From assembly GCA_029834535.1 (NCBI GenBank), contig JAQMWT010000043.1:1-64000 (forward strand): DNA of 64,000 bases, in the 5' to 3' direction. The translations under genes and the position numbers were made by a program. Source of the DNA: Chrysophaeum taylorii (taxonomy: Eukaryota > Sar > Pelagophyceae > Pelagomonadales > Pelagomonadaceae). The notes beneath the pieces are model-generated. The model did not search any database and was not told the origin of the DNA. It saw only the letters and a program-made list of their open reading frames with translations. Positions 9,545 to 55,214 of this stretch are shown one piece after another. Each line of letters starts with the position of its first letter. Positions within the stretch are counted from its first letter, which is position 1.

Positions 9545-10160
9545 GGAAGCCGCGGAGTAAGAGGAAGGTGCGGGGATGGGGCAGGTGCGGGGACGAGGAG
9601 AGTGCGAGGACGGGGAGGTCGCGAGGAAGAGGAATGTGCGGGGGGATATCGCGGGGAAGAGGAAGGCGCGAGGTTGGGGAAGATGCGGGGACGAGGAGAG
9701 TGCGAGGACGGGGAGATCGCGGGGAAAGGGGGAGGTGCGAGGACAGGGATGTCGCGAGGAAGAGGAAGGTGCGGGGACCGGGGACATCGCGGGGAAGAGG
9801 AAGGTGCGAGGTCGGGGAAGGTGCGGGGACGAGGAGGGTGCGAGGACGGGGAGAGCGCGAGGACGAGGAGAGTGCGGGGAGCGAGGAAGTCGCGGGGAAA
9901 GGGGAAGGTGCGAGGACGGGGAGATCGCGGGGAAGAGGAAGGTGCGGGGAGCGGGGAAGTCGCGGGGACGAGGAGGTCGCGGGGACGGGGAAGGTGCGGG
10001 GAGCGGGGAAGGTGCGGGGAGGGAAGGTGCGGGGACGGGGAAGGTGCGGGGGCGGGGAAGGTGCGGGGAGCGAGGAAGGCGCGGGGAGAGAAAGTGCGGG
10101 GACGGGGAAGGTGCGGGGACGGGGAAGGTGCGGGGCGCGGGGAAGGTGCGGGGACGGGGA
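9545..10160 (+). repeat. 17-bp minisatellite, array 3 (more diverged)
   Basis: G-rich strand on top, same family. Units are more mixed than in array 1: variants with GAGGAAG and TCGCGGGGA alternate in the first 400 bases, and cleaner units follow from about 9970. Open in several frames for the same reason as array 1; none is a gene. Confidence 0.85.
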
Positions 10161-10184
10161 TTTTCCCCTTTCGACTCTCGGCCC

Positions 10185-10500
10185 ACATCCTTTATGCTCC
10201 CTACACACACCACCTTCTTAGCAGTCGACATTTAAAGACAAGCGTACTTATCTCCGCCCGTCAGGCACATCCCTCCTACCCCACAAACCCACCCACATCC
10301 TTCATGCTCCCCACACACACACCCCTCTTAGCAGTCGACATTTACAGACAAAAACCTTCATGCTCCCCACACGCACCCCCCTCTTAGCAGTCGACATTTA
10401 AAGACAAACAACCCACCCACATCCTTCATGCTCCTCACACGCACCCCCCTCTTAGCAGTCGACATTTAAAGACAAACAAACAGGGGCCCGTCCTCTCTTC
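10185..10500 (+). repeat. CATGCTCC/AGTCGACATTT module, four tandem-like copies
   Basis: Copies of the roughly 60-bp module (CATCCTTCATGCTCC to CAGTCGACATTTA) lie near 10190, 10285, 10345 and 10425. The same module occurs at 4700, 10600, 24125 and, inverted, near 10690 and 37970. Spacing is uneven and copies are dispersed. Confidence 0.8.
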
Positions 10501-10520
10501 GCCTGCCCCACGACTCGGCG

Positions 10521-10792
10521 ATGACCCTGACTAGGTCCCGCGTACTTATCTCCGCCCGTCAGGCACATCCCTCCTACCCCACAAACCCACCCACATCCTT
10601 CATGCTCCCCACACACACACCCCTCTTAGCAGTCGACATTTAAAGACAAACAAACAAGCAGGCAGACAAACATCTGCCGATTGCTAAGAGGGGGGTGTGT
10701 GTGGGGAGCATGAAGGATGTGGATGGGTTTGTGGGGTAGGAGGGATGTGCCTGACGGGCGGAGATAAGTACGCGGGACCTAGTCGGGGTCAT
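10521..10792. repeat. 115-bp fold-back (inverted repeat with 40-bp spacer)
   Basis: Arms 10521-10637 and 10678-10792 are near-perfect reverse complements with only a few mismatches. The spacer 10638-10677 holds CAAACAAACAAGCAGGCAGA-type sequence. The arms contain the CATGCTCC module and a GGACCTAGTC edge seen also near 24060 and 38050. It looks like a fold-back or MITE-type end-to-end unit of the local repeat family. Confidence 0.85.
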
Positions 10793-10829
10793 CGGTAGTA
10801 GTAAGGAAACTTGTGAGGGTTAACGGTGA

Positions 10830-13800
10830 TCATATACGGTGGTTGCATACTTGACTTTCCCCTATTTTTTTTCGAGGCATGTATGCGAGAAGAAGCACCA
10901 CGAGAGCCCACAAGGCGTTTCGGTAGGCAAACTTTAGCCGCTCGGCCTCGACACACTGGCGCGTGGCGCCGCAGAACCAGTCGAAGCGCCAGCAGAGGTA
11001 GTGGGGCCGACCGTGGCGGATATGAAACGCAGCGTGCCCTGCGTCGACGACGTTCTTGATCGCCACCGAAACGACGGCGGCAGCCAGGCGGCGGGACTTG
11101 GAGAGGTGCGTCGACTCGGGGCCGCGAAGTGCGCGGGTGGTTTCACACACGAATTCGACGAGCCAGACCGCGACCAGGTACTTCAAACACGACGCGGGAA
11201 ACCACGGAAACAGGATAAACAACGCGAGCGAGTATTCGATGACGTTGGGGAAGTTGAGGTAGACGAACTCCGAATGCCTACGACGGAAAACAACACAGTT
11301 GCTGCCGCGCTCGGACATGTATGAGCTCACACCGGTAAAGCAAATAGCCGTCGCCCGTCGTCCAATTCCAAAAATGGCTAACGTATGCAGGCGTGGTCTC
11401 GGCTGGCCACCATTCGTGAACGACGACAGCGTCTGCAACCCGGCCAAGCGGCAACCTGCGTTCACCATCCAAAGAGGATGTTCTTTCTACTTCGTTGCGC
11501 TACTACTGACCCCATCTTCTTGGTTTGCCTGATGCAAAAGTCCACATCCTCGCCGCCGCCGCTCTTGGCGAATACGGGGTCGAACGTGATCGCCGCCGAG
11601 CGCTTGACGAGCAGGTTCGCGGTGACGCCCCACGGCACCTCGTCACCCATCCACGACGGCAGATTAAAAAAGAAGGTGATGTCGCTCATCCGAGTGCCTT
11701 CGTGCAGGATGTTGTCAGTCAAGGGAAGCTCGACGGTACCGACGAGGCCGGCGACCCGGGTATCCTCATCGTCTCTGGCGAGGCGATCCACGTACGCGCG
11801 AAGGCACTCTTCCGTCAACGCCGCGTCGTCGTCGAGGAAAAGAACCCACTCTGCGCACGCCTCTTCGAGGCCTCGGTTTCGAGACATTGGGGCTCCGATG
11901 TTGGTTTTGTTCACGCGGACGCGGCAGTTGGGTCCCTGGAGCAGCCGGAGCTCGTCGATATTCGAAGCGCTGGGAGTATCGACGATGACGATAAACTTTA
12001 TGTCAGCGTTTGGGGGAACGGGACACGACAGCGCTTGTTTAATGAGATCGATTGGGGTGCGCACGGTGGGAATAACGACGTCGATGGTGACTACTCCGGC
12101 GTCGAGCTTCTTTGCGAGCACAGCGGCGTTCGGCTCTAAGAACTTGTTCTTCCATTCGGGCAACGGCTGGCGATCGTAGAGCGGCGGCGAGCAAGGATTA
12201 CAGCTCAAGCACGACACAGGGCCGCCGCGCTTGTTGACGACGGTAACTCCGGTGAGAATAGTGGCGCGCCCCACGCGGCGATAGAGCTCGAAGATATACG
12301 GGTCCGCATCTTGATTCACGAACTCTATTGGAAACGGCCAGTTGAACAGCTCGAGATGGCGCTTGGTGAAGATAGGGAACGTCGGCACGCTCGAATCGAC
12401 GGCGTCGAGCGGAGCCACAACCCCCACGCCATCCGGAGGAAGCTCGCGCTCAACTTCGAGGAGCAACGTCCCGTCGGGTACGATCGAAACATCGTCCCCC
12501 CACAAAAAAACGTAGGAGCAGCCGTCGTCGACCGCCTCCCGCGCCAAGCTTGCCCAAATCGCGCAAATGGCTGCGGGCTTTGTCGGAGGAAACTTGTGCA
12601 CAGAGAGAGAAACAATGCCGGCGAGGCGACTGCGCGTCGAGGCTTCGTGACTGCGCTCCCACAGTACGTCGTCGTAGTCGACGCCAATGTAGAGTTTGAC
12701 GCGCGACAACGCGCCCGCGAAGCACCGCGTGAGATGCTCCGTCCAAATTCTGGGAGGACATTCCTCGGTGCAGCGGAGAGGCAGAACCACGCCGACGTCG
12801 TGAGAATGAAGGCAAGTTTGATGGAACTGACTGTTGACTAACGCTCGCGCCTGGACGAGAAGTTGCTTCTCGGACTCGAGGATGGGTATCGGGCATCCGT
12901 CGTTGTTATCCTCCACTGTGGTGGCACTTGCGACGATTTCGAGAGCTTCTTTCACCGCGTCCGTAACTGGTGTCGACACTGGTAGAGGGAGGTTGAACCC
13001 GTGCTGCTTCACCTCAAACCACTCGCGCTTGTACGGGTTGGAGCAACCCGGAACCCACGGCTTGACCGGCGACGGAGCGTACTTTGCGCGCTGGTCAATC
13101 GAGAACCGAGGCGACCCGGTGAAATGGACGATGTATGGATCCTTCTCGATGCTTTCAAACTCGGACTCGGTGAATAACCGTGGAAAATCAAGTTCAGACC
13201 TGGTACGAAACCGCGCGTAAGTTCCGAGCCCCTGCGCGTTCCACTGCGGCGGCAATGGCGTCCAACAGTCGACGACGCTGTTGAGTAAGGCCTGATCATT
13301 CTCGAATTCGCTCGCCCTCGCCCGGAGAGTGGGGCCGAAGTCGTGTCTCATTCTGCCCAGATTCAAGAGCATCACGCCAGCGTTGAACTCGCCGCGAATG
13401 CCAAAGTCGACGACTGCGGCAAACGTTGTGAGCGCAGCGTAGCGGTCGCGCAATTCGAGGAGGTCTCGGCGACAGAGCACGTCTACGTCCAAGTAGAGGA
13501 TCGTGGCATCCGTCGGAATGAGCTGGTCCAAGTAAATTCGCGACCACGTCGGTTGGCACGATCTCGGGCCGGCGACGAAGACGAGCTTGGACGACGCATC
13601 GAGCGCGACCCTTTCGAGGTCCGCGCGCCACTGCGTCGACAAGCCCTCGTCAACCACCACGAAAACGAGCATGCGAGGTTCGGAGCAGTGGCCGATGGCG
13701 GATCTCACCGCAACGGCCGTGGCGCACGCGTAGGCATCGTCGGTGACCATGGCGATTATGAATGGCTGCGACGCGGGATGCTGCACGTGGTGCCTCAGCC

Positions 13801-14362
13801 CGCCAGAATCTTTTTTGACGATGAGCTGGTAGCCCTTGTACACGACGACTCCTTGGGGCTTGACTAACTCGACGAAACTGTCGATCGCGACGCGTGGATG
13901 CTTCATGGTGCTTTCATCCTCGAGGTCCCATTCATAGTCGTCAAAGATGATACACCCCTCGTCGTCCAGGCATCGCCACGCAGCAACAGCGTCGTCCATG
14001 ACTTCGAGGCGGTGATGCGAACCGTCGATGTAAACAAGATCGAAGACGCGAGCCGCTTTTTTGAGCTCGTGCATCGCATCAGCCGAGAACCGCGGCCAGA
14101 TCTCGACGCGGGATCCTCGCGTGTTCTTTCGCGCACGCATAAACCGCGCGAGCCCATCCTCTGTTATCGCCGCACAATCAAAGTGATCCACAGTCACAAC
14201 AACGCCTCCAAAGATCTCAAAAAGCGCATTGGTTGATCGTCCTTCCAAGGTTCCAATTTCTAAAATTCGCACGTTCCCTTTCCGGTGAACAGACGCCAGT
14301 GGCCCAGTCTCGTCCGCCCACACCCCCCGGTGTAGGCTCGTCCAATCGTGCGTGAATTCCAT
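10830..14362 (-). CDS. methyltransferase - GT8 - GT-A-like - GT2 fusion, C-terminal membrane segments
   Basis: Exons complement(11511..14362, 11333..11455, 10830..11277) give 1140 residues; both introns are 55 bp, GT-AG, and restore one frame. Start ATG 14362 (MEFTHDW); the next upstream in-frame codon is TTG. Residues about 1-190: class I SAM methyltransferase (ILEIGTLEGRST, VTVDHFD, FDLVYIDGSHH). About 195-455: GT8-like glycosyltransferase with YLDVDVL, FNAGVMLLNL and HFTG. About 520-710: a further GT-A-like domain with FLWGDDVSIVP, not assignable. About 755-975: GT2-like domain (VVIPTVRTP, NIGAPMSRNRG, FLDDDA, GGGEDVDFCIR). The C-terminus has hydrophobic segments (SLALFILFPWFP; ALWALVVLLLAYM), suggesting a Golgi or ER anchor. 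Likely role: building and methylating a surface or secreted glycan. Domain calls are firm for the methyltransferase, GT8 and GT2; substrate is unknown. Confidence 0.85.
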
Positions 14363-14634: not shown

Positions 14635-17182
14635 TGTGAGGAAGCTATGACACTTACCCCTGCACCACGTCCCCATTATAGTTCTCTCATCCCCATTTCA
14701 GTGCTCACATGGTAGCAGGTGTTCGTTACCAGATTTCTTGCAATGTCAACCATCGAAGGAACTTTAACGTTGTTCCGCCTTTCAGCTCTCGTCTTTTGTT
14801 GCCCCATTGTCACCTGTTCTTGCTGTTGCCCGATTGTCACCTGTTCTTCCGCTGCTGCCCCCTTGTCCGCTGTTGCCCCCTTGCCCCCTGTGTTTGATGA
14901 CAATGCGCCGGTTTCACTGGGACTGATCACCCCATCACGTGAACCGACCATTCTACGAGCTCATAAACTCCGACGCACCAAAGAGAGAAAACAACAGAAA
15001 GAGCAAAAGAGAGAAAACAACAGAAAGTGCAAAACAAAGTCGAGCAAACCAGAGCCGACAAAACCAAAGAGCCCAAAACCTCCTGAGGAAAGTGCAAAAC
15101 AAAGTCGCGCCAAACGGAGCCGACCGCGCAAAGTCGACCAAAGCGCATTACAACAACCAACAAACTTTCATACTGGCGTTTGTCAACAACGCGATGTCGA
15201 TTCTTTCGTTTGTTAGTTCATTATGTCTGCCTTCCCCTTTGTTTAGCTAACACCCGTGTTGATCCCCATGCACATGTTTATTACTCTGCTTCCGAAGAAA
15301 CCTCTCAGTATTCATACATTGACGAAACTACCGTTACTTCCACCCATTTACTTGAAGCTTTAGCTCAGACCAATCCTGAGCGTCCTGGCTGGTTGCAAGC
15401 CATCGCCAAAGAGTATCGCTCCCTTGGTCAGCTTGGTTGCTGGGATGTTGTTCGCCTTCCTTCGACTTTTTCTGGCAACATTTGTACCCTCAAGTGGATC
15501 CTTCGCAAGAAGTATGACTCTGGCCGCTTCAAATCGTACAAGGCTCGCCTCGTTGTCCGCGGTTACACCCAGGTTCACGGCATTGATTATCATGACACCT
15601 ACTCACCGGTTGCTAACATCGTCACGATCCGTTTCTTTCTAACCTTTGTCGCTGTTCATGACTGGGATTTGCATAAGTTGGATGTCAACTCCGCTTTTAT
15701 CCAAGCTCCCATTGACGAAGACATCTATGTCTGGCCACCCGAAGGTTATGCTCCTCGCCAACCCACCGATGGTTTCAAAATCATTTACACGCTCCGTCGC
15801 TCTTGGTATGGTTGCAAACAAGCTTGTCGTAATTGGTGGCTTTATTTTGAGCGCTTTCTCATCAATGATTGTGGCTTCGTCCGCGGATCTGGTGACACTT
15901 GCAGCTACACACTCATGCTTAAGTCTACTGTCGTTCAGCGCCTTGCTCTCGTCGTTGATGATCTTCTTGTGGCGCACCCCCTTTCTTGCATTGGCCATTA
16001 CCAAGCTTCCTTTTTGCGTTTTTCAAAGCCTTCCCACTTCCGTTGGTCTCCGCCTTACGCGTGCTCGCGCACGTCGCAAGCTCGCTATCTACCAATCCCA
16101 TGCTATCCGTGAAATCCTCACCGAACATCGCTTCATCAACAGTAAACCAGAATTTACTCCCGCTCCCAATGGTTCTTCCTCTTTCTGCGGCTGCTTCTCC
16201 TGCACCTGACTCCCCTGCTCACGTCTTCATGGCACGCATCCCTTTTCGTCGTATTCTCAGTTGTGTCTTGTTTCTTCCTGTTATGCCTCGCCCTGATATC
16301 ACTTGGACCGTCAATCCGTGTGCGCCTTTTACTGACAATCCTGGTAAACCCCACTGGCGCGCCTTATCTCATACCCTCCGTTATCTCCATGGTACTCAAG
16401 ATCTTGCCCTTGTTCTTGGTCGCGCTTCTACCCTTCGTCTCTGTGGTTATTCCGACTCCAGCTGGCCGACGACCCTGATGACCGCCACTCGACTACTGGC
16501 TTTTGTTTTCTCCTTGCTGGCTCTATGATCGCCTACTGCTCCCGCTCGCAGTACTTACTTGCTCGCTCTTCTTTTGAAGCTGAATTGCTCGCTCTTTACG
16601 CCGCTACTGCTAAGCTCTCTAGGCTTCTCAAACTTTTTGATGACTTTGCTCTCCCTCGTCACACGGTACCAATGTATGTCGATAACAGAACCACCGTCAC
16701 CCAAGTCCGTCTCCAATGTCTCACGCGGCGCACCCGCCATATTGATATTTGTTTTTACAGCACCGCCGAATATCATCGCAACCACATCATTGACCTCCAA
16801 CATAGCGATATCTTCACCCGCAGTACGGAAGCTCCTTCCTTCCTCCGGCTTCGTGCTCGTTACCTCACCTCGTGACTTCGCCCTGATATCTCTCCTGTCT
16901 CTTTCTGTCACACTGCCTCTCCTGACGTCTTCCTTCAAGCTTCTCCTCTGTGAGGATCTCACTTACCCCTTTTTTCCTTCTTCCTTTTCTTTCTTTTCCA
17001 GCACCTGTGACACAGGTGCTGGAAAAGAAAGAAAAGGAAGACAAGGAACACACAGGCTGTGTGAGGACCTCACTTACCCCTTTTTCCTTCTCTTTCTTTT
17101 CCAGCACCTGTGTGAGGAAGCTATGACACTTACCCCTGCACCACGTCCCCATTATAGTTCTCTCATCCCAATTTCAGTCCTA
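14635..17182 (+). mobile_element. copia-type LTR retrotransposon fossil 1
   Basis: Ty1/copia family. The 5' LTR is 14635-14709 (75 bp, TG...CA), followed by a TGGTAGCAGGTG primer-binding-type site. The 3' LTR starts at 17111 and is incomplete. Reverse transcriptase and RNase H coding traces of copia type fill about 15240-16875. No recognisable gag or integrase remains, so it is a broken, shortened copy with several breaks. It shares its LTR with fossils 2 and 3. The low divergence of RT text from the other copies suggests recent activity of the family. Confidence 0.9.
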
Positions 17183-30534: not shown

Positions 30535-33501
30535 TCAGCGCCGCGGCGGGGCGGGTACTCGGAACTCGAAGTATTGTCCCGGGTAGACGTTGAGCGGGAC
30601 GGTGACGCGACAATGTCCAACGTTGGGGACGTTGACGGTGAGGACGCTGCCGGGGGTGACGCCCGGGGGGACCTGGACGCGCATGTTCGAAGGCTGGGGT
30701 TGGGGGGGGAGGTTGGGGAGGACGGGGTGTGAGGGGGCGCGCTGGGACTGGCGCGCGTTTGGGTCGTACTGCACGGTGAACGAGGATCCGGCGACTTGGC
30801 CCGGCGGGACGGAAACGCGGAGAGTTTGACCGGTCGGGGCGCGTATCGTGAGCATCGCGCCGGGGCCCGCGTTGCTGGGGACCGTGACGCGACACTGGTG
30901 ATACTGGGGCTGCTGCTGCGGGGCATAGTAGCTCTGGGGTCGCGTGATCGGCGGCGTCGAAACGGGGACGCGCTCCTCGGGGGGGGCGTAGGGCGGCGGG
31001 GTCGCGGCGGAGGGGGGCTCGGCGGCGACGGGGGGCGCGGTGAGGGAGGCGGGTAATCTCCCCGAAAAAGACGAAGATGACGAGGAAGGTGCCCACGAGG
31101 CATGCGGGTCGTGGCGCGGCGGAGGTCGGGCCGGCGGAAGGTCCGACGTCGGTCGAGAACTGGCGCCGACGACGAGCACGAGGGAGTCGCCGTCGCGGAC
31201 GCCGGCGGCTGAGAGAGCGAGGTTGTCGTCGCGGAGCTGCTGGCCGCGGTTAACGAGGCGGACGCGCGAGGGATCCATGTTGTTGTGAAGCCTCGCCGCG
31301 GTACCTCGAAGGGTTCCGACGGTCGTTCGGGGCGTCGCGTCGAGGTCGGCCGCCGTGTATCGGTTGCCGCCGTTCGTCCGGATCTCGATCGCAAAGTCGT
31401 CGTCGCGGCGCCGCACCGGCGGTCCGGAGGGCGGCGCGCTCGCCGCGTGGACGTCGTTGTACGCCGGCGGCGACGGGGCCGCCGCCGGCGCGGCCGGCGG
31501 CGCGGCCGGCTCTTCGCCGCCGTCGGCGAAAAAGCCAAAGTTGCCTATGATCACGTCGGCGAGACCCGCGTTCGGCGCCAGGAACTCGTCGCGGCTGATG
31601 AGGCCGTCGCCCTCGACGTCGCAGGCCGCGAGCAGCGCGTGGACGATTTCGGTAATCGCCCGGACTTCCTCCCGGCGGCCTCGCTTGTCGAAAGAGTGAA
31701 CCAACGCGCGGACGAGCTCGCCCTCGTCGAGAGACCCGCTCCCGTCGTCGTCCCAATATTCAAACCAGCCCTCCTTGTCCTTGGTGAGGTCGGGGGCGGC
31801 CGCGTGGCGGTCTTCGACCCGCGGAGCCGAAGTCGCCTCGAGGTCCTCGTCGAGGCTCGGGCTGAGCTGTTTGATGACGGCGAGGAGGCCGCGGTCGGGA
31901 TCGACGAGCTCGTCGTAGCTCAAGGAGCCCGAATGGTCGAGGTCGAACCTGTCCCAGATCTTGTCCCAGTTGGCCTCGAGCTCCTCCTCGCGCACGGCGA
32001 GCTGGGACTTGAGCGTCGCCAGCACGTCCTCCGCCTCGATCCGGCCCTCGCCGTCTACGTCCAGGAGATCAAACCAGGCCCGCGGATCGTCGACGACGCG
32101 CGGAAGTTCCTTCGTTCCCGTCGACGCGCGCCGACACATCGGGCACGCCGGCGACGGCTGGCCCGGCAGCGCCCGCAGGCAGTCGAGGTGCACCAGGTGC
32201 CGGCACAGCCGCCGACCCGCGTCGGTCGTCAGCACGCCCACGGGCCGCGCGTGCAGCTCGTCGAAGCACACCGCGCACTCCGAGTGTTCCTCGGCCGCGT
32301 CCCCGCCCGTCACCAGGGAGGTGAACTTGTCCACCACGTCCTCCGACGACGCCTCCGGAGGCGGCGGCGGCGGCGGCCGCGACGGCGGCGGCGGCGTCGA
32401 TACTATCGTCTCCTCCGACAACAAATCTCCGTCCTCGTCTGCTCTCCGGGCCGCTTCCGGGACGACCGGCCGCTGCCACTCCTCCTCCTCGTCGACCGGT
32501 GCCGTCGCCGCGTAGGCCGGCGACTCGTCTTTCTCCTCCTCCTCCTCCTTGAGCGCCGGCGCCGGCGGCGGCTGCTCCGGGATAACGGCGGGTGTCGCGG
32601 CACCGTCGTAGTCGTCTTCTTGCTCGGGTTGCGAAGCGATGCGCGCGAGCCCACCACCACCACCACCACCACCACCCCCAAAGGGCGGGGGCGGCGCCGT
32701 CGGACCCCCCCAGGTGTTGGGCGCGGTGACGGGCGTCCCGTTGTCAACGGTGGGCGGGAGCCGGTAGCTCGCCGCCTGCGGGCGTTGGGTCGGCGTCGGG
32801 GGCGGCCCGCCGAGCGGTTCGCCGCGAGCGACCGCGTGGAGCTGAGCGAGCCACTTGTCTTTGAGGTAGTCGGCCCGGGCCGATATGTAGTACTCCGCGC
32901 CGGGCACGCGCACCGTAAACGAGTAGGGCTTGTCCTCGTCGACGGGCCGCGCGTCGATAACGGCGCCCGCGAGGTGAATCGAGCCCTTGGCCTGCGGCGC
33001 GCTCGGATCTGCCTTGCGGATTAGGTCGACGTGTCGCGAGTGGAGGCCTTTGGTAAAGTAGAAGAGGGCCGAGCTCCGCGGGGCAAGCACGAAAAACCGC
33101 CGCTGCCACGACCCCTTGCGCCACCCCTTGGACTGCTTCCGCAGGAGCCAGCCAAAAAGCGGTTCCGAATCTGCCGCGAAATTGTCGTAAGGATCCGTAA
33201 TTGTCATCGACGAGAACTGCGGCGGATTTCTCGACGACGGTCGCCGGCTCGACCGCTCCACCTCCTTGCGCACGACGCGCGTCGACTCGTTCTCCACGTT
33301 CACCTGGATCATACCCGTGCTGGGGGGCTGCGCCATGCGCCGCGACACGGCGGCGGATCCAAATCGAACCTCAAATCGACCAACCCCGTTCACGTTCAAA
33401 GGAACCGACGACGCCCCCGCCCGTTCCGCCGCCGCGATCGCCTCGTTCTCCGAGGCCGAGTACGGGTGCCACACGCCGCGCCCGTCACAATGCGAGTACA
33501 T
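30535..33501 (-). CDS. WWE - PH - RING - EF-hand - ubiquitin-like multidomain protein, probable E3 ligase
   Basis: A 988-residue single-exon frame from the ATG at 33501. Residues 1-80: WWE domain (CDGRGVWHPYS, VRFGSAAVSRRMAQ), a module that in known ligases and PARPs binds ADP-ribose-type groups. About 115-228: PH domain (FGWLLRKQSKGWRKGSWQRR, ending DKWLAQLHAV). About 230-400: Pro/Gly/acidic linker. About 409-457: RING-type zinc finger, CAVC near the start and CPMC at the end, with CRHLVHLDC between. About 474-660: four EF-hand-like units (DVDGEGRIEAED, DLDHSGSLSYDE, DDDGSGSLDEGE, DVEGDGLISRDE). About 702-778: ubiquitin-like fold. 868-988: repeats of the VPPGVTPGSVL type. Inference: a Ca-responsive, membrane-recruited ubiquitin ligase. 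The combination is unusual; domain calls are strong, function is not shown. Confidence 0.88.
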   Translation of the reverse strand: MYSHCDGRGVWHPYSASENEAIAAAERAGASSVPLNVNGVGRFEVRFGSAAVSRRMAQPPSTGMIQVNVENESTRVVRKEVERSSRRPSSRNPPQFSSMTITDPYDNFAADSEPLFGWLLRKQSKGWRKGSWQRRFFVLAPRSSALFYFTKGLHSRHVDLIRKADPSAPQAKGSIHLAGAVIDARPVDEDKPYSFTVRVPGAEYYISARADYLKDKWLAQLHAVARGEPLGGPPPTPTQRPQAASYRLPPTVDNGTPVTAPNTWGGPTAPPPPFGGGGGGGGGGLARIASQPEQEDDYDGAATPAVIPEQPPPAPALKEEEEEKDESPAYAATAPVDEEEEWQRPVVPEAARRADEDGDLLSEETIVSTPPPPSRPPPPPPPEASSEDVVDKFTSLVTGGDAAEEHSECAVCFDELHARPVGVLTTDAGRRLCRHLVHLDCLRALPGQPSPACPMCRRASTGTKELPRVVDDPRAWFDLLDVDGEGRIEAEDVLATLKSQLAVREEELEANWDKIWDRFDLDHSGSLSYDELVDPDRGLLAVIKQLSPSLDEDLEATSAPRVEDRHAAAPDLTKDKEGWFEYWDDDGSGSLDEGELVRALVHSFDKRGRREEVRAITEIVHALLAACDVEGDGLISRDEFLAPNAGLADVIIGNFGFFADGGEEPAAPPAAPAAAPSPPAYNDVHAASAPPSGPPVRRRDDDFAIEIRTNGGNRYTAADLDATPRTTVGTLRGTAARLHNNMDPSRVRLVNRGQQLRDDNLALSAAGVRDGDSLVLVVGASSRPTSDLPPARPPPRHDPHASWAPSSSSSSFSGRLPASLTAPPVAAEPPSAATPPPYAPPEERVPVSTPPITRPQSYYAPQQQPQYHQCRVTVPSNAGPGAMLTIRAPTGQTLRVSVPPGQVAGSSFTVQYDPNARQSQRAPSHPVLPNLPPQPQPSNMRVQVPPGVTPGSVLTVNVPNVGHCRVTVPLNVYPGQYFEFRVPAPPRR

Positions 33502-39762: not shown

Positions 39763-42700
39763 TGTGAGGAAGCCATGACACTTACCCCTGCACCACGTCC
39801 CCACTATAGTTCTCACATCCCCATTTCAGTTCTCACATGGTAGCAGGTGTTCGTTTATCTCTGTCATGAGTCGCCCTGATATCACTTGGACCGTCAATCC
39901 GAGTGCGCCTTTTACTGACAATCCTGGTAAACCCCACTGCAACGGTCCTCAAGATCTTGCCCTTGTTCTTGGTCGCGATTCTACCCTTCGTCTCTGTGGT
40001 TATTCCGACTCCAGCTGGGCCGACGACCCTGATGACCGCCACTCCACTACTGGCTTTTGTTTTCTCCTTGGTGGCTCTATGATCTCCTACTGCTCCCGCT
40101 CGCAGTAACTCCTTGCCCGCCCCTCTTTTGAAGCTGAATTGCTCGCTCTTTGCGCCGCTACTGCTAAGCTCTCTTGGCTTCTCAAACTTTTTGATGCCTT
40201 TGATCTCCCTCGTCAAACGGTCCCAATGTATGTCGATAAACAGCACCACCGTCACCCAAGTCCGTCTCCAATGTCTCATGCGGCGCACCCGCTATATTGC
40301 CATTCGCTTTTACAGCACCGCTGAATATCATCGCACCCACATCATTGATCTCCAACACAATCCCCGCCTTGACAACCTTAGTGATATCTTCACCCGTAGT
40401 ACGGAAGCTCCTCCCTTCCTCCGGCTTCGTGCTCGTTACCTCACCTCGTGACTTCACCCTGATATCCCCTGTCTCTTGCTGCCACACTGCCTCTCCTGAC
40501 GTCTTCCTTCAAGCTTCTCCTATGTGAGCGTCTCACTTACCCCTTTTTCCTTCTTCCTTTCCTTTCTTTTCCAGCACCTGTGTGAGGACCTCTGTTACGA
40601 ATGGAATGAGGCGTTAGACTAGCGATAAGAGAAAGACGTATGGATACTGGATACGTGGTGCAGGGGTAAGTGTCATAGCTTCCTCACACAGGTGCTGGAA
40701 AAAAGAAAGAAAAGGAAAAAGGGGTAAGTGAGGTCCTCACAGAGGAGAAGCTTTGAGGAAGACGTCATAGAGGCATTGTGGCAAGAAAGAAAACAACAGA
40801 GATCAGGGCGAAGATCACGAAGTGAGGTAAAGAGCACGAAGCCGGAGGAAGGAAGGAGCTTCCGTACTGCGGGTGAAAATGTCGCTAAGATTGTGAAGGC
40901 GGGGTATGTGTTTGAGATCAATGATGTGGTTGCGATGATATTCGGCGGTACTGTAAAAGCGAATGTCAATATGGCGGGTGCGCCGTGTGAGACATTGGAG
41001 ACGGACTTGGGTGACGGTGGTGCTATTATCAACATAAATTGGGGCCGTGTGACGAGGGAGATCAAAGTCATCAAAAAGTTTGAGAAGCCAAGAGAGCTCA
41101 GCAGTAGCAGCGTAAAGAGCGAGCAATTCAGCTTCAAAAGAAGAGCGAGCAAGTAAGTACTGCGAGCGGGAGCAGTAGGCTATCGTAGAGCCAGCAAGGA
41201 GAAAACAAAAACCAGTTGTAGAGTGGCGTTCATCAGGGTCGTCGGCCCAGCTGGAGTCGGAATAACCACAGAGACGAAGGGTAGAATCGCGACCAAGAAT
41301 AAGGGCAAGATCTTGAGAACCGTTGAGATAACGCAGAGTGTGGGATAAAGCGTGCCAGTGGGGTTTACCAGGATTGTGGGAAAAGCGCGCACACTGATTG
41401 ACGGACCAAGTGATATCAGGGCGAGTCATGATGGAGATGAAGAGGACACAGCCAACAATACGGCGAAAAGGGATGCGTGCCATGAAAATGTGATCTGGAG
41501 AACCAGGAGTAGGACAATCAGCCGCAGAAAGATGAAGACCTTTGGGAGCGGGAGTGAGTTCGGGTTTACTGTTGATGAAGCGATGTTCGGTAAGTATTTC
41601 ACGGATAGCATGGGATTGGTCAAGAGTGAGGGTTCTCCGAGGGCGATCACGCGTAATGCGAAGACCAACGTAAGAGGTGAGATCAAGTTCATTGACGTCA
41701 GTGAAAGCGCGGAAACGGAGGAAAAAGGCTTGGTAAGCGCGGAAACGGAGGAAAAAGGCTTGGTAATGGCCAGTGCAATGACGAGGGTGCGCCACAAGAA
41801 GATCATCAACGACCAGAACGAGACGTAGAACGACGGTAGAATTGAGCACGAGCTTGTAATGGCAAGTGTCACCAGATCCGCGGACGAAGCCACAATCATT
41901 GAGAAGGAAGCGTTCTAAATAAAGCCACCAATTGCGACAAGCTTGTTTGCAACCATACCAAGAGCGACGGAGCTTGTAAACGATTTTGGAACCATCGGTG
42001 GGTTGGCGAGGAGCATAGCCTTCGGGTGGCCAGACATAGATGTCTTCGTCAATGGGAGCTTGAATAAAAGCGGAGCTGACATCCAACTTGTGCAAATCCC
42101 AGTCATGAACAGCGACAAAGGTTAGAAAGAAACGGATCGTGACGATGTTGGCAACCGGTGAGTAGGTGTCATGATAATCAATGCCGTGAACCTGGGTGTA
42201 ACCGCGGACGACGAGGCGAGCCTTGTACGATTTGAAGCGGCCAGAGTCATACTTCTTGCGGAGGATCCACTTGAGGGTACAAATGTTGCCAGAAAAAGTC
42301 GAAGGAAGGCGAATAACATCCCAGCAACCAAGCTGACCAAGAGAGCTGTATTCTTTAGCGATGGCTTGCAACCAGCCAGGACGCCCAGGATTGGTCGGAG
42401 CTAAAGCTTCACGTAAATGGGTGGAAGTAATAGTAGTTTCGTCAAGGTCTGAATACTGAGACATTTTTTCGGAAGCAGAGTAATAAACGTGTGCATGGGG
42501 ATCAACAAGGGTGTTAGCCAAACAAAGGGGAAGGAAGACATAATGAACTAACAAACGAAAGCTAACAGAAGAGACATACAAAGAGTTACAGGAGGAAACA
42601 GAAGCGACAGAGGAAACAGAATCAACATCGTGACAGGAGGAAACAGAATTGCCCGTATAAAAGTTTGTTGGTTGTTGTAACGCGCGTTGGTCGACTTTGC

Positions 42701-44681
42701 GCGGTCGGCCCCGTCTGGCGCGACGTAATGGTGCACGTTTCGTATTGTCCGGTAACAGCGTAGTCAGTGACGGTTGAGTTGTTTCAGGGGTGATCAGTCC
42801 CGATAAGGCCGGCTCCGGAGCATCAAAAACAGAAGACATGGGCGCGACGGCGGAAGATAAACGAGGGTCGTAATAAAATAAGTCAGGAAAACGAGAATCC
42901 ACTAGAGACGGAGGAAGGGGTTGAGAGGACAGTGACTTACGCAGAGCGAAATTTTCGTCAAAACCAACATCAATCGAGGTGTGGATGACAGGACCTGTGG
43001 GGCGTTGAAGCAATATGCGATATCCAGGGCCTCCAGAGGGATACCCAATGAAGATGCCGGTTATAGCTTTGGTAGGCCATTTGTCGCCAGTGAGAATTGC
43101 TGCTGGACAGCCCCAAACACGAAGAAAATCGACACGTGGGAGAGTTTCATGTAGCATTTCATGTGGCGTCATATATCCAGGATTAGAGGCATTTGGCATA
43201 CGCTCAGAGATGAAGTCAGCCGTTTCCATGGCCCAACGCCAAAAATCAGGTGGACGGTGCGCATGTACCAAAAGAGTGCGAGTAATATCAGCGGTTGCGC
43301 GATGAGAGCGTTCCACAACACCGGAAAAAGCGTGCGCCTGTGAAGTTTTGGACTGAGCTGCAGGGGCGCGTTTAAGCGCGATGTTGTTGCCCAGACAGAA
43401 GGTTTCGAATTGGCCCATAAGAGAGCGGCCACGATCGGTGTAGATGAGGGCAATGCGATATCCGAATGGGCGAACCACGGTAGACAGAAAAAGTTCGAGT
43501 TGACGAGCGTTCGTAAGAGCATCGTGTCGTGGAGCAAAGTACCGCGTGCGGCGGCGCGTATGATCATCGACAAACGCGAGGATCGCGCGATCTTGATATA
43601 TGAAGGATGGGACGCCGGCACACATGAGATCGGCGTGAATAATAAGGTATGGGGCAACGGCACGTGGACGAGACAAAGGCTCGGAGGAAGGAGGCGAAGT
43701 GGAAGCGGAAGCATGAACTTTACGTTGGCCAACATGCGCAGCATGCATTTTACCGAGAGCACAAGCAGGACAAAAAGAAAGCGACGCGGAGCTCGGGAAA
43801 AACGGTGCGCCAACAGCAAGAGAAGACAAACGCCGAAGATAGGGAGGACTATAATGACCAAGACGAGCATGCCAAAGGTCGAAGGTAAGTTGAGTGCGTT
43901 GAGACACAGCGGGAAACGCACAAGGGTCATGGACACGGGGGCAAGAAGAAAGAAAATGCCACAAAAGGTGAAACGTAGTCCGCGTAGGGCGCAGCGGTCG
44001 TATTGCCGATCCAACAGACGATCAAAAGAAGACCACAGCGACGAAGCAGGGGAATAACGTGATGCGTTTGGCGGTGACGTAAAATACGTTGCGGATAAGC
44101 AGGGGCAACGGCCTGAATGGTGTGGCAATCGTAACCAATTTGCTCAAGGGCATGATCTGAAAGAATCCGTTTGTCACCAAGGCCAGGAGAGATGAGGGTA
44201 TGCGGGAACGCGACATGGATACCATGAGGGGCGGAAAGAGTGGGTGCAGGAGAAGGAAGACCACGATTGTCAAGAGGACCAATTGAAGGAAACGTTAAGT
44301 GGGCAGTGGCGGAACCAGAAACCAAGCCAGTGCCGAGTGCAGAAGTGATGGAGTGATGCTGAGTATTGTCAAGGTCAGTGAAACCAGTGGGAGAGTTACA
44401 AAGGTAGACGTTTGGCGCCGGTATCATAGACAACGAGAGACGAACACCTGCTACCATGTTACGAATGGAATGAGGCGTTAGACTAGCGATAAGAGAAAGA
44501 CGTATGAATACTGGATACGTGGTGCAGGGGTAAGTGTCATAGCTTCCTCAGAACCTCACTTCCCCCTTTTTCCTTTTCTTTCTTTTCCACAGCGTTAGTG
44601 TGTGAGGAAGCTATATTACACTTACCCCTGCACCAAGTCCCCACTATAGTTCTCACATCCCCATTTGAGTTCTCTCTCACA
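39763..44681 (+). mobile_element. copia-type fossil 3, host of a nested copia element
   Basis: Outer element. LTRs 39763-39837 and 44601-44681 (about 75 and 81 bp) are flanked by the perfect 5-bp target duplication CGTGG (39758-39762 and 44682-44686). Its own body is only 39838-40592 plus 44558-44600 and holds the RNase H end of a copia polyprotein, so it is an internally shortened, broken, non-autonomous copy. Fossil 4 sits inside it. The right LTR ends 34 bases before the first possible ATG of the acyl-CoA synthetase gene. Confidence 0.9.
40593..44552 (-). mobile_element. copia-type element 4, nested, pol largely open
   Basis: Ty1/copia family, 3.96 kb. LTRs 40593-40688 and 44457-44552 (96 bp) differ at about two positions, which points to a young insertion. 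Target duplication ACCTC lies at 40588-40592 and 44553-44557. A primer-binding-type site (TGGTAGCAGGTG) adjoins the 5' LTR. One frame of about 1050 codons covers the zinc-binding pre-integrase region, integrase core, reverse transcriptase and RNase H (parts in copia order). A protease-like part lies upstream in a separate frame and no gag is seen, so it is incomplete and has at least one break. It is the least decayed copy of the family here. Confidence 0.92.
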
Positions 44682-44787
44682 CGTGGTGTTTCAAATTTCG
44701 GCGCGGTGTAATATTATGCATAAACGGACCGTAGTTTGTGTGGGTGTAATTCTTAGTTTCTTTTCGCGCGATTCGATCAAGGAAAAG

Positions 44788-46911
44788 ATGGGGAGCGAGT
44801 TGAGCATCGACGCGGCGTGCGGGGAGCACGCGGACGGCGGGGTGGAGAGCGTAGGGGTATGGAATGTTGGGGGGAGCGAGATTCCGAAGGTGAGCCCCGC
44901 GCTGAGGTGCGGGATGAACAATTCGGGAGATGGGTTCCAGCGCGATTTGGGGCCGCCCGCCTTGGAAGACCCAGAGGGGAACGGGACGGTGTGGGCGATG
45001 GTGGCCGCGAGCGTGCGGACACAGGGGTCCGGGCCGTGCATGGGGTGGCGTCCTGTGCTCAAGCGAGAGTACGAGGGCAAGTTCGAGAAGTTGACTTTGG
45101 GTGATTTCGAGTGGTGGTCGTACGAACGCGTCGGGGAGGAGGTGGCGGCGTTGGCGTCGGGGCTGCCCGCGTCCAAGGGTGAGTGCTTGCTGATTTACGC
45201 CGAGACGCAGCGCGACTGGATGGTGACGGCACTCGCGTGCTGTCGCATGGGCATCACCGTCGTCACGGCGTACGCGACGTTAGGCGAGGAAGGCGTGACG
45301 ACGGCGCTCTCGCAGACGGGGGCGTCCGTGTGCGTGTGCGACGCCAAACTCCTCAAGGTATTGACGGGGGCAAAGAAGCTCCCCCGCACCCTCAAGTCCG
45401 TCGTGACCATCGGAGACGCCGAGGCAGAGGGTGGATTCTCGTCGGGTCGCGAGATCTTCTCCCTCGAGAAAATCAAAGAGCGGGGCGCGACGAAGGAGGC
45501 GACGAGCGTCGCGCCGTCCGAGGTCGCGCTCATCATGTACACGAGCGGAACCACCGGCGTTCCGAAGGGCGTGGTGGTGGCTCATCGGAGCCTGGTGGCA
45601 ATGGCGATCTCTACGAAAACTTACCTTCCGTTCTTTAATTCTTCCGACGTCGTGTGCGCGTACCTCCCGCTCGCCCACATCATGGAGTTCGGGGTGGAGC
45701 TCTGGTTTTTGCACTTGGGCGGCAGCATGGGGTACGGGTCGGCGCACACGCTCACCGACACGGGCGTGAAACTCCAGAAGGGATGCCGCGGGGACGCGCC
45801 GCTCCTGCGGCCGACGGCGCTGCTGTTCGCGCCGGCCGTGCTCGACAAGGTGTACGCGGCAGTCTTGCGCAAGGTCGAAAGCTCGCCGCAAAAGAAGTAC
45901 TTGTTCGATCTAGCGCTCGACGCGGGGAAAGCCCGCTTCGAGCAGGGGTTGGTCGGCGCTGGCTTTTTCTGGGACGCGATTTTGATGAAGAAGATTCGGG
46001 CGCTCGTCGGAGGTCGGCTCCGGTACGCCGCGAGCGGTAGCGCCCCTCTCTCCCCGGCCGTCCACGTCTTCGTGCAGACCTGCTTCAACTGCCCCGTGCG
46101 CCAGGGTTACGGCTGTACCGAGACCTGCGGGACCTCGTGCCTCGGGGTTACCGAGGACAACGCGACCGGCCAGGTCGGCCCGCCGACGCCCGTCTCCTAC
46201 GTCCGCCTCCGCGACTGGGAGGAAGGCGGCTACTTGAACGCGGACCTCGAGAACCCGGCTATCGGCCGCCGCCGCGGCGAAGTCCTGATCGGCGGGCCCT
46301 CGATCTGCGACGGTTACTTTGTGGACAAAAAGAAACCCGACCCCGAGATCGTCAAGAAGAACGAGGAAGACTTCGCGACGATCGATGGCGTGCGCTATTT
46401 TTGCACGGGCGACGTCGGCGAGATCGACGAGCGCGGCCGACTGCGGATCATCGACCGCAAGAAAGATCTCTTCAAGGGGGCCACGGGCGAGTACGTGGCG
46501 CTCACTAAGGTCGAGGCCGCGCTCCGCCTCTCGAAATACGTCGAAATTCCAGTCGTTTACGGCAGGACTGGCGAGAAGGGCGTCGTCGCCCTCGTCTGCC
46601 CGCAGATGCCCGCGATCGAAGACTTGAAGCTTACGGTCGGCCTCGGCGACCTGCCCTACGGCCCGGACCTCCTCCAGCGCCCAGAGATCCTCCAGCCCGT
46701 CTCTGACGCCCTCAAGATCCAATGCAAGCAGTCCGGCCTCCTCCCCTTTGAAACCCCGCTCGCCTTTGCCCTCGTCGTCGCCGACGATGGATCGCCCGCC
46801 CTCACGCCCGACAACGGCTTCCTCACGACGACGATGAAGGTCAAGCGCCCCGTTGTCGCTAAGGCTTTCAAACCCCAACTCGACGCGGCCTACGCCTCGT
46901 GCGCCAACTGA
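44788..46911 (+). CDS. long-chain acyl-CoA synthetase (AMP-forming)
   Basis: 707 residues from the ATG at 44788 (MGSELSIDAACG); an in-frame ATG at 44716 would add a 24-residue hydrophobic start and cannot be excluded. The frame upstream of 44716 runs into the copia LTR. It activates fatty acids to acyl-CoA with ATP. Motifs: the AMP-binding P-loop MYTSGTTGVPKG (about residues 250-261), YLPLAHIMEF, GYGCTETCGTSCLG, and the adenylate motif FCTGDVGEIDERGRLRIIDR followed by KKDLFKGATGEYVALTKVE; these follow ACSL/LACS order. Single exon. Its neighbours DGAT2 and an SDP1-like lipase also act in triacylglycerol metabolism. The presence of an LTR in its promoter region is notable. Confidence 0.93.
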   Translation: MGSELSIDAACGEHADGGVESVGVWNVGGSEIPKVSPALRCGMNNSGDGFQRDLGPPALEDPEGNGTVWAMVAASVRTQGSGPCMGWRPVLKREYEGKFEKLTLGDFEWWSYERVGEEVAALASGLPASKGECLLIYAETQRDWMVTALACCRMGITVVTAYATLGEEGVTTALSQTGASVCVCDAKLLKVLTGAKKLPRTLKSVVTIGDAEAEGGFSSGREIFSLEKIKERGATKEATSVAPSEVALIMYTSGTTGVPKGVVVAHRSLVAMAISTKTYLPFFNSSDVVCAYLPLAHIMEFGVELWFLHLGGSMGYGSAHTLTDTGVKLQKGCRGDAPLLRPTALLFAPAVLDKVYAAVLRKVESSPQKKYLFDLALDAGKARFEQGLVGAGFFWDAILMKKIRALVGGRLRYAASGSAPLSPAVHVFVQTCFNCPVRQGYGCTETCGTSCLGVTEDNATGQVGPPTPVSYVRLRDWEEGGYLNADLENPAIGRRRGEVLIGGPSICDGYFVDKKKPDPEIVKKNEEDFATIDGVRYFCTGDVGEIDERGRLRIIDRKKDLFKGATGEYVALTKVEAALRLSKYVEIPVVYGRTGEKGVVALVCPQMPAIEDLKLTVGLGDLPYGPDLLQRPEILQPVSDALKIQCKQSGLLPFETPLAFALVVADDGSPALTPDNGFLTTTMKVKRPVVAKAFKPQLDAAYASCAN

Positions 46912-53353: not shown

Positions 53354-55214
53354 TTTCTTATTCGCGACTCGCTGGTGGCGCCAGAGCAGAAATGGGAGGA
53401 AGCCGCCGCCAATTTCCTTCTCCAACTATTAGTTGAAGATTCACGTCCGTGCGGAACGCTGAAGTTAAGGAAGAGTCATCTTCGTTTCTTGTGCCTTGAA
53501 TCAATACTACACGAGTACTTCTATTTAAGTATAATATCATATCTCAAATATTTTGTTTAAAATGTATCATCAGCACTCTTTTTTTTTGGGGGGAGGCGGG
53601 GGGGCCTTTTTTCAAGAGGACCACTGATAGAGGAGGGTATAAAGAGGTGGGGACAGCTTCAATTTGGAAGGAAGGTAGGTATTATTATGTGGCGTACGTG
53701 CATTTGGGGGAGAAAGAAGAAAGCTTAGTTCTGTAGCTTCACGTGTTCCGAATACTTGTTGCTGAGCGGCGTAGAATATGATGCACTTTCTTTTGGGGTT
53801 TCGAGATCTCTGGGTGGCCACGTGGCCAACATCAAAACCGAACTCCTTTTGAAACGCCGTCATCATCACACTACTAGAGTAGAGCAAGGTTGAGCAACTT
53901 CCTAACCGAGGAGATCCCCGTTGTTGTGGCTGCCGGGGGTGCGTTGCGGGCTCAGCCGCCGTTCAAACGAGCCAGAGCGCGGATATGGAGCGGAGACCGG
54001 AAGTGATGCCAGAGCCGGCCACGTCTCGCGTAACTTGAAGCTGGTCGCTGATCCACCCACCGGCTACTGAGCGTGGCCCATACTACACCCACCGCCTAGT
54101 GCGTCGAGCGGGCGGCGAAGAATCTGGCCGAGTGGCCACTCAGTTCGTCTACCGCGGCAATGGCGACGGCACTGGCCTCTACGGTCCCGTCAGCAGCGCA
54201 CCCATTTTCCCGAAAAGCCACACCCCCGACTGTTCGAGCTCCCGAACGAGGGCAACGCCGTCTGCGTCCAGCAGGTTGAGTACCTCAAGCCTAAGAGCCG
54301 CAACGCCGCCGCCATCGCCGAGATCAAGACCTTCGCGGTGGCTGCCGCCAGCGGGCTGCCGCGGGTTTCGACGCAACCACCAGCCCTACTACAACCAGAA
54401 TAAGCTCAAGTAGATAGTACGCATCTCTCCTGAAAAAGGTCTCGACAGCGCCGAGCTCGCAACCAACGGCGTCAGCGGCCGACATCCCTATTTGGCCCGC
54501 ACTCTTCTTCTTTTAGCCGCAGACGTCGAAAACATCCGACAACGAAAGCATTGGCTGAAGGACGCCCAAATGCTGGGACGACGGCGATCTCGTTCGCCGG
54601 TGACCAGGCGGCCATATACCCGATCGCGCCCGAGGGTGTGACTACTCTCTCGTTCGCCGGTGACCAGGCGGCTGTATACCCGATCGCGCCCGAGGGTGTG
54701 ACTACTCTCGCCGAGGCCTAGGCCTAGGCCTACCCACTTGCTGCCGCCTGAATTACCTCGTAAAGGAAGGCTCTGGCTCGCTGCTTCCAATTGAACCTCC
54801 AACACTTCCCGTCGAAGAGTTATTATTAGTAATCACTCGCGCACGGTCTCCTTGCCGTGCTGTCTCCTGCCCCCCCTTCTTTGGTGTCGCCTTTTACAAA
54901 TCACCACGATGCGGAATCTCTCCTCTCGAACGCGAGCTCGGACTTCTTCTTGGTTTGCAGGCACGAGGGTGGCGCGGAGGTAGGAGCGGTGGACCGTGTA
55001 GTTACGATGACGTCAAAGGAGGAGCTCTAGGCCAACGCCATCCCGAGCTTGGCGCTCTCTTCATAGCCGCCGACTGCAACGCCCGCACACTCTGCACGAT
55101 GATATGGGCGGGAGAAGTGACGCTTCAAAATTGCCGATCTAGTAGATCTCAATACTTAAACCCTAGTTGTAGAAAAGAAGAAGCGACCTCAAGTTGAAGT
55201 TCAAGCGTGAGAGA
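53354..55214. other. intergenic with a 60-bp tandem duplication
   Basis: Two adjacent near-identical 60-bp units occupy about 54588-54710 (shared text CGTTCGCCGGTGACCAGGCG). A plus-strand stretch near 54235-54380 reads LFELPNEGNAVCVQQVEYLK, protein-like but without start, stop context or known family, so possibly a dead gene. Nothing else is recognised. Confidence 0.45.

What the first reader, a model, noticed from the sequence alone, without database searches (positions are those of the whole stretch)
10830..14362. Four-domain methyltransferase/glycosyltransferase membrane protein
One gene joins a SAM methyltransferase, a GT8-like enzyme, a further GT-A-like domain of no known family and a GT2-like enzyme, ending in membrane segments. 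Such a chain could carry out consecutive steps on one glycan. The third domain (FLWGDDVSIVP) is unassigned and may be new. Parts resemble methyltransferase and glycosyltransferase genes of marine algae and of their large DNA viruses.
Basis: partly seen in the sequence, partly recalled or inferred. Interest (0 to 1): 0.8.

Follow-up and report, generated by a model that had tools for sequence, protein, structure and literature searches.

The report
Four-in-one algal glycan-building enzyme
A marine alga encodes one protein chain that appears to join a methyl-adding enzyme to three sugar-adding enzymes, one of them without a named family in the libraries searched, and relatives elsewhere keep the same two-enzyme core while the extra tools attached to it change.

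Summary
On the minus strand at 14362-10830 of a contig of the pelagophyte alga Chrysophaeum taylorii, one gene (deposited as CTAYLR_008950) encodes 1140 residues: Methyltransf_24, GT8, an unassigned domain (D3) and GT2, then membrane-type helices. Both 55-bp introns match the deposited protein, whose two ends look wrong. D3 is not a linker: it folds as a complete GT-A glycosyltransferase (pLDDT 92.8) and has no Pfam, NCBIfam or PDB sequence match. Among 77 well-covered D3 sequences, GDD is kept in 77 and NQxxDP in 76. D3 marks a wide family: 81 of 91 sequences with D3 also hold GT2, always after D3 (1-36 residues); the other 10 look like fragments. Around this core the partners change: methyltransferase, GT8, sulfotransferase-like, NDP-sugar epimerase. 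The window's methyltransferase and GT8 resemble those fused to distant D3 cores more than the own-genome paralogues tested. Most likely it is a membrane-tethered multi-enzyme adding successive sugars and a methyl group to one glycan, working like chlorovirus A064R or bacterial WsaE; homology to these was not tested. Substrates are unknown. Four viral-contig scans found no relative.

The parts
10830..14362 (-). whole gene: exon 1 14362-11511, exon 2 11455-11333, exon 3 11277-10830 (stop 10832-10830); 1140 aa
   Evidence: homologue P0004 supports both ends
13787..14362 (-). SAM methyltransferase domain (Methyltransf_24), residues 1-192; YIDGSH at 14032-14015
   Evidence: Pfam PF13578 46.8 bits, cut-off 26.3; coordinates
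13115..13756 (-). GT8 domain, residues 203-416; LDVD at 13492-13481, HFTG at 13126-13115, KPW at residue 434
12098..12799 (-). D3: unassigned GT-A-fold domain, residues 522-755; GDD at 12499-12491, NQDADP at 12316-12299
11335..12094 (-). GT2 catalytic domain, residues 757-991; DDD at 11833-11825, GGGED at 11560-11546 (interrupted by intron 11510-11456)
   Evidence: Pfam PF00535 37.9 bits, cut-off 23.3; model built from seven relatives, E 4e-87 to the unspliced frame
10863..11334 (-). C-terminal interface and membrane-type helices, residues 992-1130 (interrupted by intron 11332-11278)
   Evidence: helices in the P0004 model; hydropathy; C-terminal FD(W/F)F.G...ER pattern shared with P0004-P0008
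11456..11510 (-). intron 1, 55 bp, GT-AG
   Evidence: same junction in deposited protein P0003
11278..11332 (-). intron 2, 55 bp, GT-AG
   Evidence: same junction in deposited protein P0003

Best explanation
The gene encodes a single-chain, membrane-tethered glycan-assembly enzyme with four active sites. The constant core is D3 plus GT2-with-C-terminal-helices: two GT-A glycosyltransferases that add two sugars in succession to a membrane-held or growing glycan. The N-terminal GT8 (an LgtC-type fold, so probably a retaining alpha-transferase; recalled) adds a further sugar, and the Methyltransf_24 domain O-methylates one of the sugars. No N-terminal hydrophobic stretch was seen (hydropathy only; no signal-peptide program was run) and the helices lie at the C-terminus, so all four domains should face the cytosol, where SAM and nucleotide sugars are. 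In relatives the place of MT/GT8 is taken by sulfotransferase-like or NDP-sugar-epimerase domains, so the architecture reads as a fixed two-step sugar core with exchangeable tools. Shown: gene structure, domain identities, predicted D3 fold, motif conservation, fixed core order, partner exchange. Inferred: that every domain is active, that they act on one glycan, their order of action, the cytosolic side, and that the product is a surface or mucilage glycan.
Against: No activity, substrate or product is known to me for any member. The four-domain form is seen in only two sequences (window and P0004). P0007 and P0008 carry the core alone, although these may be incomplete gene models. Fragment P0089, left out of the motif count, lacks GDD in its D3 stretch. 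Membrane segments are weak by hydropathy: 3 of 20 members tested (P0005, P0010, P0014) have no stretch at 1.6, and P0021 has one near its N-terminus. Relative placement of domains in the P0004 model is uncertain (pTM 0.58). Assembly on one glycan is inferred from fusion and co-occurrence only.
Confidence: 0.6

Rival explanations
1. D3 is a non-catalytic GT-A-like domain that only binds the acceptor or scaffolds GT2, so the protein has three active sites.
For: D3 is nearly always attached to GT2 (81 of 91), as a dedicated accessory domain would be; no solved relative by sequence.
Against: GDD 77 of 77 and NQxxDP 76 of 77 are kept although identities to the window's D3 go down to 24%; a D3-like domain without GT2 lies in a separate frame of the same genome (L002, hhalign probability 97.9 over 227 columns).
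Confidence: 0.17
2. D3 and GT2 work as a bifunctional copolymerase (like K4CP chondroitin polymerase or heparosan synthase), alternating two sugars into a long chain, with MT or sulfotransferase modifying or capping it.
Confidence: 0.18
3. The fusion is a gene-model artefact: adjacent genes read through in one frame.
For: No RNA reads could be examined here; no intron separates MT, GT8, D3 and the start of GT2 in exon 1.
Against: One open frame of 966 codons; P0004 carries the same four domains from a different source; P0006 is an MMETSP transcript with MT-D3-GT2 in one ORF; GT8-D3-GT2 recurs in P0021, P0024, P0026, P0036.
Confidence: 0.03
4. The gene was acquired from a giant virus of algae.
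For: Nearest structural neighbours of D3 among viral models: CeV A0A0N9QZS9 (TMq 0.81) and CroV E3T529 (TMq 0.79); giant viruses carry multidomain GTs (PMC9614988, passages read). P0010 lies on an unnamed 192-kb contig whose nature I could not check.
Against: No relative in four IMG/VR scans. Named sequence kin lie in diatoms, Pyropia, Glomeromycota and a Verrucomicrobia MAG beside radC. The scans need short shared motifs and could miss distant viral kin.
Confidence: 0.05

Closest known systems
Chlorovirus PBCV-1 A064R
   Same: One chain joining two glycosyltransferases and a SAM methyltransferase that build and methylate the end of one glycan; its second domain also matched no annotated family (PMC9614988, passages read).
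   Different: 638 aa, three domains, MT at the C-terminus, predicted soluble; no GT8 and no membrane part. A064R was not compared by sequence or fold here.
WsaE of Geobacillus stearothermophilus
   Same: N-terminal methyltransferase plus two glycosyltransferase domains in one chain (PMC2943079, passages read).
   Different: Bacterial, soluble, S-layer rhamnan; no GT8 or membrane helices mentioned. Not compared by sequence.
PBCV-1 A111/114R
   Same: Three putative glycosyltransferase domains in one chain for successive sugars (PMC7826918, abstract read).
   Different: No methyltransferase named; viral.
K4CP chondroitin polymerase and Pasteurella heparosan synthase
   Same: Two GT-A domains in tandem in one chain; K4CP holds the first six Foldseek ranks for the P0004 model.
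   Different: Overall arrangement not shared (TMt about 0.3; VIA aligns GT2 alone); no MT or GT8; no sequence match for D3.
C. taylorii paralogue at G000:C667 (L002, 684-aa frame)
   Same: D3-like domain in the same genome (hhalign probability 97.9; HMM E 4e-17 for a search of one sequence).
   Different: No GT2 in its frame, hydrophobic stretches near the N-terminus, NWWSDDW in place of NQDADPY.

Membership tests
Methyltransf_24 (PF13578), residues 34-143 | whole-protein score over Pfam's curated cut-off | tested here: met
   46.8 bits, cut-off 26.3, profile 1-105 of 105
Methyltransf_24 (PF13578), residues 34-143 | SAM-dependent O-methylation of a sugar | not testable with these tools
   no assay
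GT8 (PF01501), residues 203-416 | score over Pfam's cut-off; DxD and HFTG..KPW (hallmarks recalled) | tested here: met
   52.5 bits, cut-off 24.3; LDVD 291, HFTG 413, KPW 434
GT2 (PF00535), residues 757-991 | score over Pfam's cut-off; acidic DDD and GGGED (recalled as typical) | tested here: met
   37.9 bits, cut-off 23.3; DDD 844, GGGED 935
GT-A fold, D3 | nucleotide-binding Rossmann-like fold of GT-A enzymes | tested here: met
GT2 by sequence profile, D3 | Pfam/NCBIfam GT2-type profile match over D3 | tested here: not met
   no model matches residues 440-753; D3 against the family's own GT2 profile: hhalign probability 6.6, P-value 0.0055, 77 columns that line up GDDV with DDDV, a faint similarity as between GT-A folds
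any CAZy GT family, D3 | match to a CAZy family model | not testable with these tools
   no CAZy library on hand; structural rows are near ties, so no single family is singled out
Processive membrane GT2 (HAS/BcsA type) | QxxRW motif in the interface helix (recalled) | tested here: not met
   0 of 48 sequences in which the region was found (of 81 with GT2) have Q at the first and R at the fourth place; W is kept in all 48
Processive membrane GT2 (HAS/BcsA type) | GT2 domain with C-terminal interface and membrane helices | tested here: inconclusive
A064R/WsaE-type multi-step glycan enzyme | two or more GTs and a methyltransferase in one chain | tested here: met
   plus D3 fold
A064R/WsaE-type multi-step glycan enzyme | the domains act in succession on one glycan | not testable with these tools
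   no assay

The most novel reading that the evidence does not exclude
D3 founds a new GT-A glycosyltransferase family, and D3-GT2 is an ancient bifunctional sugar-chain core that eukaryotic algae have repeatedly fitted with methyl-, sulfo-, glycosyl- or sugar-nucleotide-making tools: a modular single-chain assembly line for surface polysaccharides on the cytosolic face, comparable in logic to modular synthases of natural products.
Probability: 0.3. Interest if true: 0.75.

Novelty: new variant of a known kind. Interest (0 to 1): 0.55.

Why it matters
How algae make methylated and sulfated wall, matrix and mucilage polysaccharides is, as far as I know, poorly resolved at the gene level. A core that stays fixed while its attached enzymes change would give a sequence handle on that chemistry: the attached tool predicts the decoration. 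It also adds a GT-A domain with no entry in Pfam or NCBIfam, and it offers one protein in which several successive glycan steps could be assayed at once.

Tried and rejected
D3 as a linker or as part of GT2: rejected, since it folds alone with high confidence and its profile is only faintly like the neighbouring GT2 (hhalign probability 6.6, P-value 0.0055 over 77 columns). D3 as a known Pfam, NCBIfam, PHROGs or PDB-sequence family: nothing found. A weak TAGT (TET-associated glycosyltransferase) match to the D3 of P0009 at E 0.19 was not followed; the TAGT match to P0025 falls on its GT2 part, so it gives no support.

Viral origin: four scans of IMG/VR gave none; only fold-level neighbours. 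A fold missing from the PDB rows is not evidence against kinship.

The deposited gene model: its start at residue 75 of the frame removes MT motif I, which P0004 and P0006 keep, and its third intron (73 bp, 11028-10956) removes a C-terminus that P0004-P0008 share.

Stand-alone D3 in short proteins: the profile search (only the 7996 candidates sharing most words were scored) gave 13 hits. Six hold D3 followed by part of GT2 (P0080, P0082, P0086, P0087, P0092, and P0088 by eye only); of the other seven, six end in D3 or within 40 residues of it and P0081 has 95 unmatched residues after D3. No complete stand-alone member of this subfamily was found.

Independent recruitment of MT and GT8 in the window lineage: made less likely. 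The small trees were weakly supported (70/59 for the GT8 split) and their rows were picked with a model built from the fused GT8s, so they are not used as proof. The architecture tree (61 rows, quick method; P0011-P0013 and rows with poor coverage left out) needs at least 12 changes, but rows marked as core-only may be incomplete gene models. The sulfotransferase label of the 30-member N-terminal group is weak: the four tested members score below the Pfam cut-off; of that group only P0059 carries a precomputed PF13469. The five-member group, of which three were tested, is likewise below cut-off or without a match.

Literature: searches for GT-sulfotransferase or GT-methyltransferase fusions in diatoms or stramenopiles gave no paper or one, seen in the listing only (PMC3493329, on large DNA viruses); CTAYLR gave none. 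Two broader searches on pelagophyte polysaccharides were seen as short listings of 1,183 and 278 papers. Passages of PMC3797821 (algal glycosyltransferases) and PMC12085832 did not describe it. Only open-licence PMC papers were searched.

Full report
WHERE IT IS. The window is contig 43 of a 70.8-Mb genome, a contig of 90,267 bp. The deposited protein P0003, on a contig of the same length, is CTAYLR_008950 of Chrysophaeum taylorii, a pelagophyte whose 71-Mb genome is described in PMC10366177 (outline and part 1 of Results read). The paper states that genes were annotated with RNA-seq and protein evidence; I saw no reads.

THE GENE. The minus strand is open for 966 codons from ATG 14362. Two GT-AG introns of 55 bp bring the frame to a stop at 10830, giving 1140 aa. 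P0004 and P0006 align through the N-terminal end and P0004-P0008 through the C-terminal end (a shared FD(W/F)F.G...ER pattern), so the longer model is better.

THE FAMILY. Searches with the D3 region alone gave 8, 71 and 13 hits. The distinct hits other than P0003, with the window and a Verrucomicrobia locus, make 91 sequences, all holding D3. In 81 of 91 a GT2 domain follows, 1 to 36 residues on, never before it. The remaining 10 look like fragments: eight have under 40 residues left after an incomplete D3, P0088 has 36 residues that by eye begin the GT2 domain, and P0081 has 95 unmatched residues. Sequences longer than the core fall into groups by what is attached (52 with over 90 residues before D3 and 11 with over 90 after GT2, the window gene counted twice as P0001 and P0003). 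Before D3: 30 with a sulfotransferase-like stretch, 10 with MT and/or GT8, 5 with a short sulfotransferase-like stretch, 4 with an NDP-sugar epimerase, and 3 (P0025, P0069, P0077) with an unidentified stretch of 150-161 residues. After GT2: 6 form one sulfotransferase-like group, which includes those three. The sulfotransferase label rests on precomputed Pfam for P0037, P0040, P0055, P0059 and P0069 and on sub-threshold scores for the others tested. Named sources include diatoms (Cylindrotheca, Nitzschia, Bacillariaceae), the red alga Pyropia, glomeromycete assemblies (Entrophospora, Acaulospora) and one entry labelled archaeon. L003 is a Verrucomicrobia MAG contig with the core beside a RadC gene; it was the one locus found in a scan of 84,980 species that relied on a single short motif. 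The four-domain form itself is seen only in the window and P0004; P0006 is MT-D3-GT2 in a transcript; P0005 starts inside its GT8.

ARE THE PARTNERS INHERITED TOGETHER? In the tree of the core (61 rows, quick method) the window sits with P0004-P0008 (SH-aLRT 100), while GT8-bearing P0021/24/26/36 and MT-bearing P0068 lie in another clade. Yet the window's GT8 scores 88.6-119 bits against those four and at most 34.3 bits against the own-genome GT8 loci examined (27 of 39 other places, one cut by a locus boundary). Its MT scores 72.0 bits against P0068 and at most 26.6 bits against 10 of 19 other own-genome MT24 places. The D3s of those five are 27-33% identical to the window's. So the same GT8 and MT lineages travel with the D3-GT2 core across a deep divergence. 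This favours an old multi-domain cassette with losses, or recruitment as a set, over chance fusion, and it is the best evidence here that the domains work on one product.

STRUCTURE OF THE WHOLE. The model of P0004 (pLDDT 77.5, pTM 0.58) has well-folded D3 and GT2 and three long C-terminal helices. Foldseek's first six PDB rows are K4CP, a two-GT-A polymerase; heparosan synthase follows at rank 10, behind GlyE and TarP. Whole-chain TM-scores to K4CP are about 0.3 and VIA aligns K4CP to the GT2 domain alone, so only the tandem logic is shared. In the VIA comparison the GT2 part matches AvpGT (19.8), WrtF (19.7), RmlT (19.5) and Chlorella virus hyaluronan synthase (18.9 over 740-1116), near ties; GT8 matches WbbM (18.6) and LgtC (18.3). 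The QxxRW signature of processive synthases is not met (0 of 48 in which the region was found, of 81), so I favour single additions over polymerisation, weakly.

COMPARISON. Chains that join GTs and a methyltransferase and act on one glycan are established biochemically: A064R of chlorovirus PBCV-1 (PMC9614988, passages) and WsaE (PMC2943079, passages); A111/114R has three putative GT domains (PMC7826918, abstract). The present protein resembles these in layout but differs in domain families, order, membrane part and host; no sequence or fold comparison with them was run. I therefore call it a new variant of a known kind, built on a GT-A domain that has no sequence family in the libraries tested.

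LIMITS. No substrate, product or side of the membrane was tested, and no signal-peptide or dedicated membrane-segment program was run. Hydropathy finds no segment in 3 of 20 members tested. Many relatives are single, unnamed metagenome proteins that may be incomplete. No CAZy comparison was possible.

Noticed in passing
L004+L005 (G000:C186:12235-24813), L006 (C479): Very long open frames in the same alga: a 4193-codon frame on C186 with two GT8 matches and a REJ domain (PF02010, E 2.5e-38), and a frame on C479 (2344 codons inside L006) with GT8 and REJ (E 1.3e-45). Glycosyltransferases joined to REJ-type proteins look unusual to me.
   Followed up: partly
L009 (C370:250375-254616), L010 (C286): Frames of 1414 and 1356 codons with two GT8 stretches and a sulfotransferase match (PF13469; 27.8 and 25.2 bits, cut-off 27), in L009 lying between the two GT8s: another kind of fused glycan enzyme in this genome.
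   Followed up: partly
L002:1264-3315 (-), G000:C667: 684-aa paralogue with a D3-like domain, no Pfam match, hydrophobic N-terminal stretches and NWWSDDW in place of NQDADPY; suggests a wider uncatalogued GT-A superfamily.
   Followed up: partly
window 10830-14362: The deposited model CTAYLR_008950 appears wrong at both ends: it starts 74 residues late and has a doubtful 73-bp third intron at 11028-10956.
   Followed up: yes
window 15180-16109 and 40818-43964: Copia-type retroelement pieces (RVT_2 E 5e-34 and 1e-34; the second with integrase and gag-pre-integrase matches, the integrase one below cut-off).
   Followed up: no
window 9800-10800: G-rich repeats up to about 10.16 kb and several copies, one inverted, of a CACACACCCCTCTTAGCAGTCGACATTTAAAGACAAAC-like unit just downstream of the gene (10.2-10.8 kb), seen by eye.
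   Followed up: no
window 30538-33501, 44665-46908, 50981-53425: Other genes: a protein with PH, EF-hand, RING and ubiquitin-like matches (the last two below cut-off); an AMP-binding enzyme; a patatin-like phospholipase with DUF3336.
   Followed up: no
P0011-P0013, P0023: D3-GT2 members in glomeromycete assemblies (Entrophospora, Acaulospora); whether fungal genes or contaminants is open.
   Followed up: no
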